From positions 1-55,826 of the forward strand of contig NZ_JAJGMW010000028.1 of the NCBI RefSeq assembly GCF_020782115.1: a stretch of 55,826 nucleotides of DNA. The letters run 5' to 3'. This DNA is from Leeuwenhoekiella parthenopeia. GTDB lineage: Bacteria; Bacteroidota; Bacteroidia; Flavobacteriales; Flavobacteriaceae. Shown here one piece after another: positions 453 to 15,414 of this stretch. Position 1 is the first letter of the stretch. The number at the start of each line of letters is the position of its first letter. The notes beneath the pieces were generated by a model. The model saw only the letters and a program-made list of their open reading frames with translations, did not search any database and had not been told where the DNA came from. The position numbers and the translations under genes are program-made.

Positions 453-600
453 TGTGCCAAACCTAAATGATCCTAAAGAATTCCAATCACTATAAGCACA
501 TTCTATCTGACCAAAACCAATAAGCAATACAGATTAAAAAGGCTCCTTTCTTTTGGTGAGCCTGCCCTGAGCGATAGCCGAAGGGTTTCTTTGGAGAAGC

Positions 601-759
601 AAACCGACGATAGGAGGTTCACGAGCTCCAAAACCAATAAGCAACAGCGAGCTAAACCGACGATAGGAGGTTCACGAGCTCCAAAACTAATAAGCGATAG
701 CGAGCTAAACCGAGGCACGAGGTTCACGAGCTCCAAAAACCAATAAGCAACAGCGAGCT
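601..759. repeat. 53-bp tandem repeat, three units
   Basis: Three consecutive 53-nt units at 601-653, 654-706 and 707-759. Each begins aaaccga and ends with an agcgagct-type block. The first two are nearly identical and the third differs at a few positions. A lone fourth unit, also exactly 53 nt, lies at 2012-2064, 1.25 kb downstream. The units directly abut, with no unique spacers, so this is not a CRISPR array. Confidence 0.9.
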
Positions 760-937
760 AAAGAAAATGAACAAAACACCCTATAGAACTAAAATACGAT
801 TCTTTAGCCCTCCCTCGATTCAGAATAGACGCTGGCAGCTCCGAGATTCAGGAGCGATAGCGACGCGGAGCTGACAAGGCAGTTTTCGCCCTCAAGGCGA
901 AAAATTCCTAAGCGAGGGGCTCTTTTCTTTTGGTTCG

Positions 938-1398: not shown

Positions 1399-2148
1399 TC
1401 CCTCGGTTCAGAATAACCTAACTTAAATGAGGAGTTAAGAATGCAAAGTGATGAGTTTCTGACCTTCCTGACAAACATTCAAAGCAAGTAGTCATTTCGA
1501 AGAAGTTTTTTACGACTGAGAAATCGCATCCCACTGATTTTATATACGTTTACTGCGCCATTCCGTCGCATACTTCAACAAAACACACCCTAAAATCTAT
1601 AACTCAAAACCTTATTTCCTTTCTTTTACCTCTACCTTGACACCAGAGAAACAGCCCGTCTCGTCAGTCAGGCAGGAAGATGACTCAACCTTAACTTATA
1701 CTTTAAGTTACTGAAAGAAATAATTACTAAATCCGAAGGGTAAGATGAATTGTAATGTGTTTGCAGAATTTAAAAAATGGCATACAGAAAAGATCTCGTG
1801 AAATTTAGGGCTGAGCGTTTAGGAATAGTCCTGTGGACTATTCTAGCGAAAGAGCCAGATTGCCGCGTGGGTAGTAAATTTTCTGCTGTTTGACCCACAG
1901 GGGAGTTCAGAAAATTTAGAAGTCGAATGATAAATTTAGAGATCGTTTCTTAAGCCTAGACTTTTTTGATTCTTTTACCTGCCCTGAGCGCAGTCGAAGG
2001 GTGGGCGATGCAAACCGACTTTAGGAGGTTCACGAACTCTATAAACAATAAATTACAGTGAGCTAAAAAAGAATAATCCCCTGTTACCACGCAATTCCAT
2101 CGCGTGCTGGAACAAAACACCCTATAGTACCTATGACTTCCAATCTTA
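1399..2148. other. Non-coding remainder of the left repeat field
   Basis: Apart from the short palindromic element at 1978-2001, the 53-bp unit at 2012-2064 and the degenerate repeat from about 2077, I see no gene or RNA here. A stretch at 1491-1532 (gtcatttcga ... gactgagaaatcg) looks like another inverted short repeat, of the type in which GTCATTTCGA and GAGAAATC arms flank a short centre. Confidence 0.6.
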
Positions 2149-2239
2149 CTCTTTGTTCTTTGTTCTTTGTTCTTTGCTCTTTGCTCTTTGCTCTTTGTTC
2201 TTTGCTCTTTGCTCTTTGTTCTCTGTTCTCTGCTCTCTG
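2149..2239. repeat. 7-bp microsatellite (C/T)TCTTTG
   Basis: Thirteen consecutive 7-nt units, mainly TTCTTTG and CTCTTTG. The last three carry a T-to-C change (TTCTCTG, CTCTCTG). Because 7 is not a multiple of three, a change in unit number would shift any reading frame. The minus-strand open frame through it is a translation artefact of the repeat. It ends about 35 nt from the 3' end of the dipeptidase gene, which points towards it. Confidence 0.9.
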
Positions 2240-2273
2240 CTCCCCCGTTAAGTAAACCCTTTCCAAAATGGTC

Positions 2274-3810: not shown

Positions 3811-4076
3811 GAATGCTGAATTCAGAATGTAGAATTTTATGCTTTCAAATAACTCAATAACTCAATAACTCAATAACTCAATAACTCAATAACTCAATAA
3901 CTCAATAACTCAACAATAAATCAGAAATACAAAATTAGAAATGCAGAACACCAGTTGTAACGTTGAAGATACCCAACCAGAAGATTATATAAGATATTAG
4001 CACTAATGAGCTCCCTTCTCTGTGGGAGAAGGGCGGGGGGGATGAGGCCAGAATGCTAAATTTTTCCGTTCAAATA
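3811..4076. repeat. Duplicated segment, copy 1 (8 microsatellite units)
   Basis: A 266-nt segment repeated at 4101-4317 on the same strand. The two copies match closely along their length, including a gagctcccttctctgtggga REP-like block at 4010-4029. The main difference is the number of 8-bp units inside: about eight here and two in the second copy, which accounts for the 49-nt length difference. No coding potential. Confidence 0.9.
3851..3914. repeat. 8-bp microsatellite AACTCAAT
   Basis: Seven perfect AACTCAAT units (3851-3906) plus a final unit ending in AC. The sister segment at 4141-4156 has only two units. The unit lengthens or shortens the segment without affecting any gene; the nearest gene start (2274-3719, minus strand) is 130 nt away. 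Confidence 0.93.
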
Positions 4077-11774: not shown

Positions 11775-12557
11775 TTGAACATTTTAGATAAAATAATCTC
11801 AGACAAACGAAAGGAAGTAGCCTTACGTAAGCAACTAATTCCCGTGAGTCAATTAGAACAATCCGTTCTTTTTGACCGGAAATCGCCTTCGCTGGCTCAG
11901 GCTTTACGCGATAGTGACACCGGCATCATCGCCGAGCACAAGCGCCGTTCCCCCAGCAAGCAGGTAATCAATCACAACCTCAACGTTCAGGATGTCGCAA
12001 CCGGTTATGAAAGTGCCGGTGCCTGCGGCATGAGCGTTCTTACAGACGGTAAATACTTTGGCGGTTCTCTGGACGATTTGCTGTTAGCCCGTGCTGCCAG
12101 CAATTTTCCGCTGTTGCGAAAAGAGTTTATGATTGATGAATATCAAATTCTCGAGGCCAAGGCTTATGGTGCAGACGTCATTTTATTGATCGCTGCGGTA
12201 CTTTCGCAAAGCGAAATCAGGAGCCTGTCTGAATTCGCAAAAACGCTGGGGATGGATGTCCTGCTGGAGGTGCACAACCTTGAAGAATTGCAAAAATCGA
12301 TTATGCCTTCGCTCGATATGCTGGGAGTCAACAACCGAAACTTAAAAACCTTTGAGGTTAGCCTCGATATCAGTAAAAACCTTTCCGCAGAAATCCCGGA
12401 CGAATTTGTAAAAGTCTCTGAAAGCGGAATCAGCACTATCGAAGCGATTAAGGAGTTACGCCCTTTTGGCTATCAGGGCTATTTAATTGGTGAAAACTTT
12501 ATGAAAACCGATGATCCCGGTGCAAGCGCCACTGAGTTTATCCATAAACTCCGATAA
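11775..12557 (+). CDS. trpC: Indole-3-glycerol-phosphate synthase
   Basis: A 260-residue TIM-barrel enzyme. Motifs include IIAEHKRRSPSK (the active-site Lys and Glu region), VLTDGKYFGGS, LLRKEFMIDEYQI, LGVNNRNLKTFEV and VSESGIST. Translation appears to start at TTG (11775): NILDKIISDKRKEV is the family N-terminus and no ATG lies nearby upstream in frame. The 36-nt spacer from trpD carries an AATAG/CAATA-rich stretch like the one that encodes the start of TrpG. Confidence 0.96.
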   Translation: MNILDKIISDKRKEVALRKQLIPVSQLEQSVLFDRKSPSLAQALRDSDTGIIAEHKRRSPSKQVINHNLNVQDVATGYESAGACGMSVLTDGKYFGGSLDDLLLARAASNFPLLRKEFMIDEYQILEAKAYGADVILLIAAVLSQSEIRSLSEFAKTLGMDVLLEVHNLEELQKSIMPSLDMLGVNNRNLKTFEVSLDISKNLSAEIPDEFVKVSESGISTIEAIKELRPFGYQGYLIGENFMKTDDPGASATEFIHKLR

Positions 12558-12646
12558 AAAGCTCCCCTCCTTTCCAAGGAGGGGAACGTTTCAGCTTTGC
12601 TGAAACAGGGGTGGTTCTACTGCCCCCGGATTGGAAATAATCTGAA
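12558..12646. repeat. Palindromic elements in the trpC-trpF spacer
   Basis: Two nested inverted repeats: CTCCCCTCCTT-TCC-AAGGAGGGG (about 12564-12587), then GTTTCAGC-TTT-GCTGAAAC (12590-12607), followed by an AGGGGTGGTT tail. Elements of this wording are common between genes in Bacteroidota. The stem could slow or stop RNA polymerase, but there is no T run. Confidence 0.8.
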
Positions 12647-13561
12647 ATGAAAAATAAAGACACACATAAAAAAGAAACTCCCGCTCTCCCGACCTCCTTC
12701 GGGATGGAGAGGGTTGGGGTGAGGATAAAAGTCTGTGGGATGAAACACAACACCGCAGCCGTTGCAGCCTTGCAGCCCGATTATCTGGGGTTTATTTTTC
12801 ATGAGAAGAGTCCGCGCAATTATGATTTAAAAGAGATTCCTAAGTTGCCACCCCGAGTCAAAAAAGTAGGCGTATTTGTCAATGCCAGCCTGGATTTTGT
12901 TCTTGAAAAAGTAAACCAATTTGGTTTTGACGTCATCCAGTTACACGGTAACGAATCACCCGAGTATTGCAAAGAACTTAGAGGGCTATGTCAGATCGAG
13001 CGTGTCACACTGAGCTTGTCGAAGTGGAGTCGTGATCCTGAGAAAGAACATAAAACCGACTCCGCCAAAAAGCCTATACCTGGCCCTTCCGGTGAGCTCA
13101 GGACAGGCTCAGTCGAAGTACCTGTACCGAGCGCAATCGAAGTGCCTGCACGGAGCCCAGTCGAAGTGCCTGTACCGAGCGCAGTCGAGGTACCTGCACT
13201 GAGCTCAGTCGAAGTGTGGAAAGTGTTTAGCATAAAAGATCACTTTGATTTTTCAGTCTTAGAAGCCTATGAACCCTATGTAGATGCCTTTTTATTCGAT
13301 ACCAAAGGCAAGGAAAAAGGAGGCAATGGGTACACCTTTGACTGGGAAGTTTTAAAAGACTATCCTTCCAAAAAACCTTTCGTACTGAGTGGAGGTATTG
13401 GTCTGGACGAACTCGACTCCGTCAAAAATATGCTGAAGACTGATTTACCGCTGTTTGCCATTGATGTAAACAGTAAATTCGAAGACCAGCCCGGATTAAA
13501 AAATAGAAGCGATTTAGAGGAGTTATTGAGCTTTTTTAGAAATCCTGATAGTGCGAAATAA
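12647..13561 (+). CDS. trpF: Phosphoribosylanthranilate isomerase with repeat-derived in-frame insertion
   Basis: A 304-residue ORF, whereas family members have about 200-210. The catalytic pair is present: Cys30 (KVCGM) and Asp218 (LFDTKG), with the phosphate-binding SGGIG at 248-252. Two segments are extra. Residues 1-26 come from a palindromic CTCTCCCGACC...GAGAGGGTTGGGG element and stand where the ATG of the usual MKIKVCGMK should be. Residues about 115-189 interrupt the loop between HGNESPEYCKELR and VWKVFSI and contain four 8-residue repeats, VEVPVPSA-like (156-187). The fold should tolerate a surface loop there. It may be functional, since no stop or frameshift is present. Confidence 0.93.
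   Translation: MKNKDTHKKETPALPTSFGMERVGVRIKVCGMKHNTAAVAALQPDYLGFIFHEKSPRNYDLKEIPKLPPRVKKVGVFVNASLDFVLEKVNQFGFDVIQLHGNESPEYCKELRGLCQIERVTLSLSKWSRDPEKEHKTDSAKKPIPGPSGELRTGSVEVPVPSAIEVPARSPVEVPVPSAVEVPALSSVEVWKVFSIKDHFDFSVLEAYEPYVDAFLFDTKGKEKGGNGYTFDWEVLKDYPSKKPFVLSGGIGLDELDSVKNMLKTDLPLFAIDVNSKFEDQPGLKNRSDLEELLSFFRNPDSAK
12996..13032. repeat. Dispersed repeat copy inside trpF
   Basis: These 37 nt match the reverse complement of 18061-18097 in a distant spacer with only two mismatches. They encode about residues 117-129 of the TrpF ORF. Finding the same sequence in an unrelated non-coding region shows that the extra TrpF segment came from a mobile or spreading repeat and not from the enzyme itself. 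Confidence 0.9.
13112..13207. repeat. Four tandem 24-nt palindromic units inside trpF
   Basis: Four 24-nt units (13112, 13136, 13160, 13184) of the form gtcgaagtgcctg / taccgagcgca. They encode VEVPVPSA, IEVPARSP, VEVPVPSA and VEVPALSS. After circular shift the unit reads CCTG-nnn-CGAGCGCAGTCGAAG-nG, the same wording as the intergenic element at 1978-2001 (core GAGCGCAGTCGAAG identical). A unit length of 24 keeps the reading frame. Confidence 0.9.
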
Positions 13562-13584
13562 AAAATAGAAATAAGAATAAAAGA

Positions 13585-13605
13585 TTTCCGCCTTCGCGGA
13601 AATGA
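13585..13605. repeat. ATTTCCGC palindrome in the trpF-trpB spacer
   Basis: ATTTCCGC-CTTC-GCGGAAAT, a perfect hairpin of the same family as those at 10648-10669, 14853-14873 and 15383-15404. It lies 17 nt upstream of the trpB start codon. Confidence 0.85.
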
Positions 13606-13621
13606 AAATATAGAATAAAAA

Positions 13622-14806
13622 ATGAACTACAACGTAAACGAAAACGGATATTACGGCGATTTTGGAGGAGCATACATCCCCGAGATGCTGTATCCCAATG
13701 TAGAAGAACTGCGCCAGAATTACATCAAGGTCATGCAGGAACCCGAATTTCAGAACGAATTTCACGAACTGCTGCGCGAGTACGTAGGTCGCCCTACCCC
13801 GCTTTATTTCGCGAAGCGCTTTTCTGAAAAATATGGGACTAAAGTCTACCTGAAACGCGAAGACCTCTGCCATACCGGGGCGCACAAGGTTAACAACACC
13901 ATCGGGCAGATTTTGATGGCTAAACGTTTAGGCAAAACCCGTATCATCGCAGAGACCGGTGCCGGGCAGCACGGGGTGGCTACCGCTACCGTTTGTGCTT
14001 TGATGGGACTCGAGTGCATCGTCTACATGGGCGCTGTTGATATCAAACGCCAGGCGCCAAACGTCGCCCGTATGAAAATGTTGGGCGCCAAGGTCGTTCC
14101 GGCAGAATCGGGAAGTAAAACCCTGAAGGATGCCACAAACGAGGCCATTCGCGACTGGATCAACAATCCTACCGACACGCACTACATCATCGGTAGCGTC
14201 GTAGGGCCGCATCCCTATCCCGATATGGTAGCACGTTTTCAAAGCGTGATTTCCGAAGAGGTTAAAAAACAACTGGTGGAGAAAGAAGGGCGTGAAAATC
14301 CCGATTACGTAGTGGCTTGTGTAGGAGGCGGCAGCAATGCTGCGGGTATTTACTACCACTATCTTGACAATCCGAATGTGGGTATCATCGCGGTTGAAGC
14401 TGCCGGTAAGGGCATTGACAGCGGCGAGAGTGCAGCAACCTCAGCATTGGGCAAAGAAGGTATTATTCACGGTAGCAAAACCCTGCTGATGCAAACGCCG
14501 GACGGTCAGATCACCGAGCCCTATTCCATTTCGGCAGGTTTGGATTATCCCGGAGTTGGGCCTATGCACGCGCACCTGTTTCGCAGCGGACGAGGGGAAT
14601 TCATCAGCATCACCGATGATGCAGCCATGCAGGCCGGTCTGGAACTCAGCAAACTCGAAGGCATCATCCCGGCGATTGAAACCTCACACGCCTTAGCCAT
14701 TTTCAAAGACCGAAAATTTAAAAAAGACGATGTGGTGGTGATTAATTTAAGCGGTAGAGGGGACAAGGATTTGAATACGTATATCGAATATTTCAACCTC
14801 GCATAA
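13622..14806 (+). CDS. trpB: Tryptophan synthase beta subunit
   Basis: A 394-residue PLP enzyme that condenses indole with serine. The PLP lysine is Lys89 in [22 protein letters not shown] and the GGGSNAAGI phosphate-binding loop are present, as is the C-terminal NLSGRGDKD. It has the normal length for a TrpB1-type protein and an N-terminus ([13 protein letters not shown]) like other partners of TrpA. trpA is 608 nt downstream, separated by a broken GIY-YIG gene and tandem repeats, whereas the two genes usually lie close together. Confidence 0.97.
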
Positions 14807-14898: not shown

Positions 14899-15189
14899 AT
14901 GGAAGAATTGTTTTAAACCTATATTCTTACCAATAAAAACCACACCGTTCTTTACATTGGGGTAACCGCTGATTTGAAAAAACGCTTAAGACAACATAAA
15001 CAAAAAAGTAATAAAGGATTTACGGGAAAATACAATGTAGAAAAACTGGTCTATTTTGAATCAACTCCCTATGTGAATAATGCGATACACAGGGAGAAGC
15101 AACTCAAAAAATGGAATCGGGAGTGGAAAGAAAATCTAATAAGCGACATAAATCCGGATTGGAATGATTTGAGTTGGATGCTTGAGTGA
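14899..15189 (+). pseudogene. GIY-YIG endonuclease-domain gene with a nonsense codon
   Basis: An in-frame ATG at 14899 gives MEELF, then a TAA stop (14914-14916), then TYILTNKNHTVLYIGVTADL and onward without interruption to 15189. Together this is a normal-length (96-codon) single-domain GIY-YIG protein with the YIL and YIG motifs and the Arg/His helix (KKRLRQHK). One base change at codon 6 would restore it. A restart at TTG 14974 would lose both signature motifs, so the product is probably inactive. It lies between trpB and trpA. Family members of this small type have no well-defined role. Confidence 0.8.
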
Positions 15190-15227
15190 AATTATTCCGG
15201 ATTAAATAAAGGGTTTTAAATAAAAAT

Positions 15228-15380
15228 AAGGATACGATTGGAGAGATTTCCGCAGGAACTAAACTAAAATAAGGATACGATTGAAGAGATTTCCTTAGGA
15301 ACCAAACTAAAACAAGGATACGATTGAAGAGATTTCCTTAGGAACCAAACTAAAACAAGGATACGATTGAAGAGATTTCC
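15228..15380. repeat. 43-bp tandem repeat ending in an ATTTCCG palindrome
   Basis: Three full 43-nt units (15228-15270, 15271-15313, 15314-15356), each starting AAGGATACGATTG. A partial fourth ends in a GATTTCCGTCTTCACGGAAAT hairpin (about 15382-15403). Each unit carries GAGATTTCC, half of the hairpin arm, so the array looks like a 43-nt unit amplified beside a palindromic element. It lies just upstream of trpA. Confidence 0.9.
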
Positions 15381-15414
15381 GTCTTCACGGAAATGACTAA
15401 AAGATTATATAAAC

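What the first reader, a model, noticed from the sequence alone, without database searches (positions are those of the whole stretch)
13112..13207. 24-nt palindromic elements inserted in frame in trpF, giving an octapeptide repeat
TrpF is about 95 residues longer than expected. Its extra loop (residues about 115-189) contains four 24-nt units, each encoding one VEVPVPSA-like octapeptide. Circularly shifted, the unit reads the same as the intergenic element at 1978-2001 (identical GAGCGCAGTCGAAG core, same 24-nt length). The enzyme's catalytic Cys30 and Asp218 and the frame are intact, and the insertion sits in a loop between HGNESPEYCKELR and VWKVFSI. This points to a small spreading element that has entered a gene for an essential-type biosynthetic enzyme without killing it, like the palindromic elements described in Rickettsia.
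Basis: partly seen in the sequence, partly recalled or inferred. Interest (0 to 1): 0.85.

Follow-up and report, generated by a model that had tools for sequence, protein, structure and literature searches.

The report
Mobile DNA hairpins crowding one enzyme loop
A tryptophan-making enzyme in a marine bacterium carries small repeated DNA hairpins inside its gene, read in frame as a floppy loop, and many related bacteria have filled the same loop with different hairpins of this sort.

Summary
In a Leeuwenhoekiella genome, trpF (12647-13561) carries four head-to-tail 24-nt units (13121-13216). Each is one hairpin (CCTG, 4-bp stem, GAGCNNNGTCGA-like core, stem) and eight codons, related to hairpins dispersed in the genome (53 matches, 3 for the reversed pattern).

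The same loop (helix alpha4 to strand beta5) is the one strongly length-variable segment in 94 Flavobacteriaceae TrpFs: 18-90 residues, the other segments sd 1.0 or less. By my own labels 61 of 94 hold a palindromic element, of at least six kinds. HisA shows a clean case: filled in the own genome and five congeners, empty in three.

In ten Flagellimonas/Allomuricauda-type species chosen for sharing one cassette, its hairpins are conserved at four-fold sites (0.96-0.98 against 0.61). In three sister pairs the cassette is swapped for another.

Best explanation: REP/RPE-like hairpins land in frame in a tolerant, disordered loop; the 24-nt kind multiplies by tandem duplication. The mover is unknown: 35 Y1-transposase loci showed no clear family hairpin.

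In-frame palindromes are known from Rickettsia and elsewhere. The hotspot, swaps and conservation appeared in none of the papers my searches listed.

The parts
12647..13561 (+). trpF ORF, 304 aa
   Evidence: ORF; PF00697; model; top fold matches are TrpF structures
13121..13216 (+). four head-to-tail 24-nt hairpin units (CCTG + 4-nt stem + GAGCNNNGTCGA-like core + 4-nt stem), 8 codons each
   Evidence: stems 3, 3, 4 and 4 of 4 pairs
13091..13120 (+). damaged unit preceding the array (contains AGGACAGGCTCAGTCGAAGTA)
   Evidence: read; inverted repeats
13003..13026 (+). 24-nt hairpin TGTCA-CACT-GAGCTTGTCGA-AGTG nested inside another hairpin
   Evidence: core at 13012-13024; the outer hairpin is uninterrupted in trpF of G001, G005, G008 and G010; same nested arrangement elsewhere in the genome, L044 twice and L068
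12990..13037 (+). outer hairpin (GTCAGATCGAGCG ... GAGTCGTGATC), split by the nested one
1978..2001 (+). intergenic 24-nt copy, CCTG-CCCT-GAGCGCAGTCGA-AGGG
561..585 (+). diverged copy CCTG-CCCT-GAGCGATAGCCGA-AGGG
   Evidence: read
12684..12724 (+). a different palindrome in the N-terminal extension of trpF; translation may start inside it
   Evidence: read; some congeners have related N-termini; copy number not tested
12563..12615 (+). palindromic sequence in the trpC-trpF gap
   Evidence: read only

Best explanation
The 24-nt unit is one hairpin of a dispersed family of short tagged palindromes, REP/RPE-like, present in this genome in tens of copies. Such hairpins, and other palindrome families, have landed repeatedly in the loop between helix alpha4 and strand beta5 of TrpF in Flavobacteriaceae. 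They survive there because that loop lies on the face of the barrel away from the active site, the insert stays disordered, the elements have several stop-free frames, and selection removes frame-shifted or enzyme-killing insertions. The 24-nt kind, being exactly eight codons, then grows and shrinks by tandem duplication (0-4 units of this kind in the genus). Shown: element anatomy, dispersal, hotspot, filled and empty sites in HisA, different contents in sister species. Inferred: mobility as the source, slippage or unequal crossing-over as the source of the array, neutral tolerance as the reason for retention. The enzyme that moves the elements is unknown.
For: Dispersal: GAGCN{2,3}GTCGARG has 53 matches in the own genome against 3 for the reversed pattern. 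Hairpin: 34 of 40 distinct copies with the 11-nt core have a stem of 4 bp or more (arms shuffled: mean 8.5, maximum 17), as do 10 of 14 with the 12-nt core (mean 2.4, maximum 7; 3 of these 14 are trpF units); the arms covary. Hotspot: of 8 inter-anchor segments in 94 TrpFs this loop has an excess of 1902 residues, the other seven 240 together; TrpC (68 of 94 parsed) and the TrpB N-part (94 of 94) hardly vary, and core density is 45 hits in 8.8 kb of loop, 2 in 64.7 kb of other trpF frame, 14 in 262 kb of other locus DNA. In-gene hairpins: 36 of 49 core-bearing units in 95 loops are fully paired (arms shuffled: mean 7.4, maximum 17), in three frames, 20/19/10. Multi-copy in other genomes: CTGAACTTGTTTCAG in 22 of 29, TCGAGCGNAGTCGAGA in 23 of 29, reversed controls 0. 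Stop-free frames: 3 to 6 of 6 for eight units tried. HisA: filled in the own genome and 5 congeners, empty in 3. Insert modelled with low confidence between confident helix and strand.
Against: No mobilising enzyme found: 35 Y1_Tnp loci show no clear family hairpin, and 6 of 13 genus genomes and 8 of 15 others have no Y1_Tnp match, although six of those eight hold 16-42 copies of one core. The four-fold-site conservation of in-gene hairpins is more than plain tolerance predicts. In a one-per-genus sample the loop is mostly short: 6 of 22 genomes had a gap of 8 codons or more (read by hand). 35 of 94 loops were first labelled 'none' or 'other' (33 after two hand corrections), and a longer HisA loop in G013 has no recognised element. 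Changes on the tree cannot tell gain from loss. Function of the enzyme is untested, and the model has a second low-confidence stretch at residues 223-228, next to Asp218.
Confidence: 0.77

Rival explanations
1. The hairpins are kept for a nucleic-acid function: as structure in the trp operon mRNA or as a DNA binding site, with the encoded peptide incidental.
For: In ten Flagellimonas/Allomuricauda-type TrpFs the four-fold-site majority fraction is 0.96 (5 columns) and 0.98 (6 columns) in the two hairpins against 0.61 (49 columns) in the body (Mann-Whitney p 3.7e-7, columns treated as independent); the spacer between them is 54% identical. Loops fold better than shuffles: z<-2 in 34 of 90, against 8 of 90 and 1 of 90 in neighbouring trpF segments. 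The own insert 12990-13220 has z -2.63.
Against: The ten rows were picked by eye because they share the cassette, which favours conservation; the related L144, whose first hairpin is altered and second not recognisable, was left out. Many TrpFs have short loops without any element, and some hairpins are decayed (L140). Repeated re-insertion or gene conversion from genomic copies would give the same conservation. No Rfam match at gathering threshold in 12400-13700.
Confidence: 0.2
2. The loop contents are exchanged between species by homologous recombination of trpF alleles rather than by fresh insertion.
For: Sister pairs L147/L149, L115/L140 and L130/L137 (support 98-99) carry alternative cassettes while their flanks are 77-100% identical per 30-nt window on both sides.
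Against: By eye the identity resumes within about 15 nt of the cassettes, so tracts would have to be very short. The families are dispersed elsewhere in most of the genomes tried, and the HisA insertion needs no exchange. Loss of different parts of a longer ancestral composite could also give the pattern.
Confidence: 0.15
3. An ordinary coding minisatellite in a low-constraint loop; the resemblance to intergenic repeats is incidental.
For: Head-to-tail 24-nt period with variable unit number.
Against: The same tagged hairpin with covarying arms occurs dispersed in the genome; other palindromes occupy the same loop in other species.
Confidence: 0.04
4. Assembly error or decaying pseudogene.
For: TrpF is unusually long.
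Against: Frame open, Cys30, Asp218 and many other barrel columns invariant, eight strands in the model, and comparable inserts in independent assemblies, e.g. Ulvibacter antarcticus with three 24-nt units (L077).
Confidence: 0.02

Closest known systems
Rickettsia palindromic elements (RPE)
   Same: Dispersed palindromes found in frame inside genes for likely functional proteins; passages and section 15 of PMC3733652 describe this for R. conorii.
   Different: Here the units are 23-24 nt and include a tandem array; several families converge on one loop of one enzyme across a bacterial family.
CGTC-tagged REPs (PMC3733652, 2013)
   Same: Short palindromes with a tag at one end, reported from Bacteroidetes among other phyla, said to apparently lack a dedicated transposase, and including intragenic copies.
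   Different: In this genome the tag is TGTCA (T before GTCA in 35 of 39 copies, C in 1 of 39), and the trpF array uses CCTG.
GTAG REPs with RAYT / TnpA-REP
   Same: Short imperfect hairpins with a tetranucleotide at the foot.
   Different: No GTAG tag, and no clear family hairpin in 35 Y1_Tnp loci examined.
REPs in Xanthomonas recB (PMC3733652, section 15)
   Same: Different REPs at about the same coding site in two species.
   Different: Here many species and at least six element kinds, with sister-species swaps.

Membership tests
CGTC-tagged REPs | short palindrome, dispersed in many copies | tested here: met
   53 matches against 3 for the reversed pattern; stems in 34 of 40 copies
CGTC-tagged REPs | CGTC tetranucleotide at one end | tested here: not met
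   own-genome copies: T before GTCA in 35 of 39, C in 1 of 39; CGTCA does occur in some trpF loops of other species. Called CGTC-like, not a member
CGTC-tagged REPs | no dedicated transposase | tested here: inconclusive
   no Y1 transposase clearly linked; other transposase types were not tested
GTAG REP / RAYT system | GTAG (or GT[AG]G) guide at the hairpin foot | tested here: not met
   tags are GTCA (32 of 40) and CCTG (7 of 14, 3 of them in the trpF array)
GTAG REP / RAYT system | cognate hairpins flank a RAYT gene | tested here: not met
   exact core patterns in 35 Y1_Tnp loci of at most 3.4 kb: one core-like match, arms not complementary. A looser pattern had one untagged C-like palindrome in L032 at 619, over 800 bases from the gene
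Rickettsia palindromic elements | in-frame copies in several unrelated genes of one genome | tested here: met
   TrpF, a HisA-type PF00977 protein and a PF00155 aminotransferase in the own genome
Rickettsia palindromic elements | protein remains functional | not testable with these tools
   needs complementation; only sequence and model evidence here
MITE | terminal inverted repeats and target-site duplication | not tested
   the HisA filled/empty comparison was not resolved to base-exact ends

The most novel reading that the evidence does not exclude
The alpha4-beta5 loop of trpF is a docking site for interchangeable hairpin cassettes whose nucleic-acid structure is under selection inside the coding sequence: species swap whole cassettes but keep some hairpin pair, so a mobile palindrome has become a replaceable regulatory part carried by an enzyme gene.
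Probability: 0.15. Interest if true: 0.85.

Novelty: new variant of a known kind. Interest (0 to 1): 0.64.

Why it matters
In-frame palindromes are usually reported as scattered curiosities. Here one loop of one well-studied enzyme has been hit again and again in many members of a bacterial family. That gives a natural series of empty, single, tandem and swapped sites, on which the questions 'how do REPs without a known transposase move?' and 'do hairpins inside genes do anything?' can be tested. It also accounts for much of the length variation of TrpF in these bacteria.

Tried and rejected
RAYT mobilisation: looked for Y1_Tnp genes and their flanks in 13 genus genomes and 15 others; no clear link. 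Against my reading of absence: two copy-rich genomes, G437 (43 copies of one core) and G441 (29), do have Y1_Tnp matches, and one untagged C-like palindrome lies in L032. A protein-level role of the peptide: not preferred, because three forward frames are used and some elements lie on the opposite strand. GTCA alone as a marker: rejected, since GTCA or TGAC is in 56 of 94 loops but also in 46 of 94 equal-length downstream segments. The pattern CATTACGAG...GTAAT occurs in 8 of 29 genomes with 1-5 copies, so dispersal is weak for that kind. The DRFSKPVRS-like and EIPA.AGI-like kinds were not tested for copy number. Exact strings of six cores gave no paper. Searches for coding palindromes, REPs in Bacteroidetes, TrpF inserts and intragenic REPs listed no paper on this hotspot; the library holds openly licensed papers only. 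PMC3733652: passages and section 15 whole; PMC6006769: passages; all others: search listing only. Ogata's Rickettsia papers are recalled, not read.

Rows dropped and choices: 110 TrpF loci (30, 80) gave 94 after 11 failed an anchor pattern and 5 were duplicates. The 80 are the best of 473 confirmed relatives, so the 94 are biased to close relatives and give no family-wide rate. Four loops under 36 nt were left out. The loop labels are my regexes, written after looking at the loops, with five Y labels added by hand; the A label of L090 is doubtful (its unit is of the 24-nt kind). The 29 genomes were my choice of 30 handles, one not held; 7 of 29 had no exact CTGAACTTGTTTCAG, among them G456, whose trpF loop (L143) holds a variant. 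The ten species were picked for sharing the cassette, and one of them (L146) is not among the 94. After this check I lowered the novel case from 0.17 to 0.15 for that ascertainment.

Full report
WHAT IS THERE. The window is contig C21 of a 4.42-Mb genome. Named relatives that match best through TrpF are Leeuwenhoekiella (L073-L076, L078), and they correspond to genus-mates, so the genus is Leeuwenhoekiella; the species is not told. trpF (12647-13561) follows trpC (PF00218) and precedes trpB. Pfam matches TrpF in two stretches. The insert between them holds, in order: a hairpin split by a nested second hairpin (12990-13037); a damaged unit (about 13091-13120); and four whole 24-nt units (13121-13216). 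Five near-matches to the core lie in the window, against a shuffled mean of 0.59 and maximum of 3.

ANATOMY OF THE ELEMENT. In 31 stretches of the own genome plus the window, 40 distinct copies have an 11-nt core (GAGCNNGTCGA) and 14 a 12-nt core (GAGCNNNGTCGA). Stems of 4 bp or more are present in 34 of 40 and 10 of 14; with the right arms dealt out anew the means are 8.5 and 2.4, the maxima 17 and 7. GTCA stands before the stem in 32 of 40, CCTG in 7 of 14; three of these 14, and three of those 7, are units of the trpF array itself. The stems take many forms (GTCT/AGAC 12, CACT/AGTG 6, AACT/AGTT 6, GGCT/AGCC 4 and others): covariation across dispersed copies. A CCTG hairpin is 4+4+12+4 = 24 nt, eight codons, so a head-to-tail array stays in frame. 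The 48-nt period scores higher than the 24-nt one (172 against 144), which fits duplication of a pair of units.

IN THE GENUS. All 12 congeners searched have a trpF match, and their loops differ. G004: another palindrome (NAELVSAS) plus three units, one of them altered. G002: HAELVSAS plus two. G005: the CQIERS hairpin and one unit. G006: one unit. G001, G008 and G010: the CQIERS or CLIERS hairpin, not interrupted. G007: a separate array of GAGCCTGTCGA hairpins, also with 24-nt period. G003, G009, G011 and G012: no recognised element. So the array is variable, and the site has received several kinds.

IN THE FAMILY. I combined 30 loci with 80 and kept 94 after dropping 11 that failed an anchor and 5 duplicates. 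QLHG-to-KVFSI runs from 18 to 90 residues, sd 12.1, excess 1902 residues; the other seven segments have sd 0-1.0 and excess 240 together. In the same loci TrpC (68 of 94 parsed) and the N-part of TrpB (94 of 94) hardly vary (sd 0.12 or less). The core motif is found 45 times in 8.8 kb of loop, 2 times in 64.7 kb of remaining trpF open frame and 14 times in 262 kb of other DNA; 28 of 94 loops hold a core. By my labels 61 of 94 loops hold a recognised palindromic element (59 before two hand corrections). RNA folding gives z<-2 in 34 of 90 loops, against 8 of 90 and 1 of 90 in flanking segments. Forty-nine core-bearing units in 95 loops have 36 fully paired stems (shuffled mean 7.4, maximum 17), 16 kinds of fully paired arms and all three frames; related species are counted apart there.

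HOW GENERAL. In a one-per-genus sample (G013-G036, 22 with both halves matched) 6 have a gap of 8 codons or more, read by hand, so the hotspot is patchy. Outside the family, 11 class-level loci that I could parse have spacing 17-24 (23 of 30 loci parsed in all). Two 12-nt cores at 24-nt spacing occur in 16 of 397 family genomes, one mismatch allowed; some lie in frame in other genes, for example HsdM, HsdS, a 3-hydroxyacyl-CoA dehydrogenase, a 2-hydroxyacid dehydrogenase and a TonB-dependent receptor. TrpF is one of several hosts; the own genome and Ulvibacter antarcticus are the two of these 16 with the array in TrpF.

HISA AS AN EMPTY-SITE TEST. The own HisA-type protein (PF00977) carries TGTCACCCTGAGCTTGTCGAAGGG in frame just before LIASGGI. 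The own genome and five congeners (G002, G003, G004, G009, G011) have a related element there (spacing 27; that of G003 is decayed), G005 another pair (32), and G001, G008 and G010 none (18); G006 has 19 and G007 22; G012 was not parsed. G013, outside the genus, has spacing 30 without a recognised element. HisA is also a barrel enzyme, and by homology this too is an alpha-to-beta loop; I did not model it. An aminotransferase-family protein of the own genome holds two copies close together.

CONSERVATION AND SWAPPING. Ten Flagellimonas/Allomuricauda-type TrpFs, picked because they share it, carry a forward and a reverse hairpin. Mean pairwise nucleotide identity is 0.96 and 0.89 in the hairpins, 0.54 in the spacer and 0.78 in the body. 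The four-fold-site majority fraction is 0.96 (5 columns) and 0.98 (6 columns), against 0.61 (49 columns). The choice of rows favours conservation; L144, a related row with an altered first hairpin and no recognisable second one, was not in the set. On a tree built without the loop, three sister pairs with support 98-99 carry this cassette in one member and a different one (HAELVSAS-like with KQV[QR]-like) in the other, while their flanks stay similar up to the loop. Minimum changes on the tree are 17 for the A kind, 15 for C, 9 for Y, 6 each for the two B kinds and 3 for F; these cannot tell gain from loss, rest on my labels, and come from a quick tree.

STRUCTURE. In the model (mean pLDDT 81.5, pTM 0.73) ten-residue means are 86-98 over residues 21-120 and 89-98 over 191-300, except 49 at 221-230, a low-confidence stretch next to Asp218. 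The insert, residues 121-190, has 49-70; residues 1-20 have 48-61. The insert lies between a helix at 105-127 and a strand at 189-196. The top fold matches are TrpF structures. That alpha-to-beta loops lie on the face opposite the active site is established knowledge of (beta-alpha)8 barrels, not tested here.

MECHANISM. Shown: the elements are dispersed hairpins; the loop is a hotspot; HisA sites are empty in some congeners and filled in others; contents differ between sisters. Inferred: they move as DNA, the array grows by duplication, and the loop tolerates them. Not found: the mover. Y1_Tnp has no match in 6 of 13 genus genomes and 8 of 15 others; six of those eight hold 42, 28, 27, 22, 20 and 16 copies of one core. 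On the other side, G437 (43 copies) and G441 (29) do have Y1_Tnp matches. By exact patterns, 35 Y1_Tnp loci show one core-like match without complementary arms; a looser pattern found one untagged C-like palindrome in L032. [quoted passage not shown]

VERDICT. The finding is real, and the Rickettsia comparison is fair as to what it works like. Membership in a named REP family is not claimed, because the defining tags were tested and not met. What seems new is the one-loop hotspot with several families, the cassette swaps and the four-fold-site conservation; none of the searches named in Tried and rejected listed a paper on it.

Noticed in passing
window 15223-15382: A 43-nt unit repeated 3.7 times in the trpB-trpA gap, next to a 71-aa ORF at 14974-15189 that reads like a fragment of a GIY-YIG-type protein (recalled resemblance, not searched).
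   Followed up: no
window 601-762: A 53-nt unit repeated 3.1 times, close after a diverged CCTG hairpin at 561-585; similar sequence follows the hairpin at 1978-2001, so the intergenic hairpin may be part of a larger composite repeat.
   Followed up: partly
window 2149-2242 and 3848-3913: Short tandem repeats of 7 nt (13.4 copies) and 8 nt (8.2 copies), of a kind that could vary in length.
   Followed up: no
L161 (G034): An HsdM-type methylase with an array of 24-nt units read in another frame as DTERSRIS repeats.
   Followed up: partly
L166 (G214): An HsdS-type specificity subunit with SSGVEMGL repeats from the same kind of array.
   Followed up: partly
L040 (G009), 281-1363: A Y1_Tnp locus with several copies of a different palindrome, TTGCCGCGCGATTGTATCGCGTGGTAA.
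   Followed up: no
L031 and L032, 1395-1427 and 1921-1950: The two best Y1_Tnp genes of the genus have the same pair of other hairpins on either side, as an IS200-type element would (recalled).
   Followed up: no
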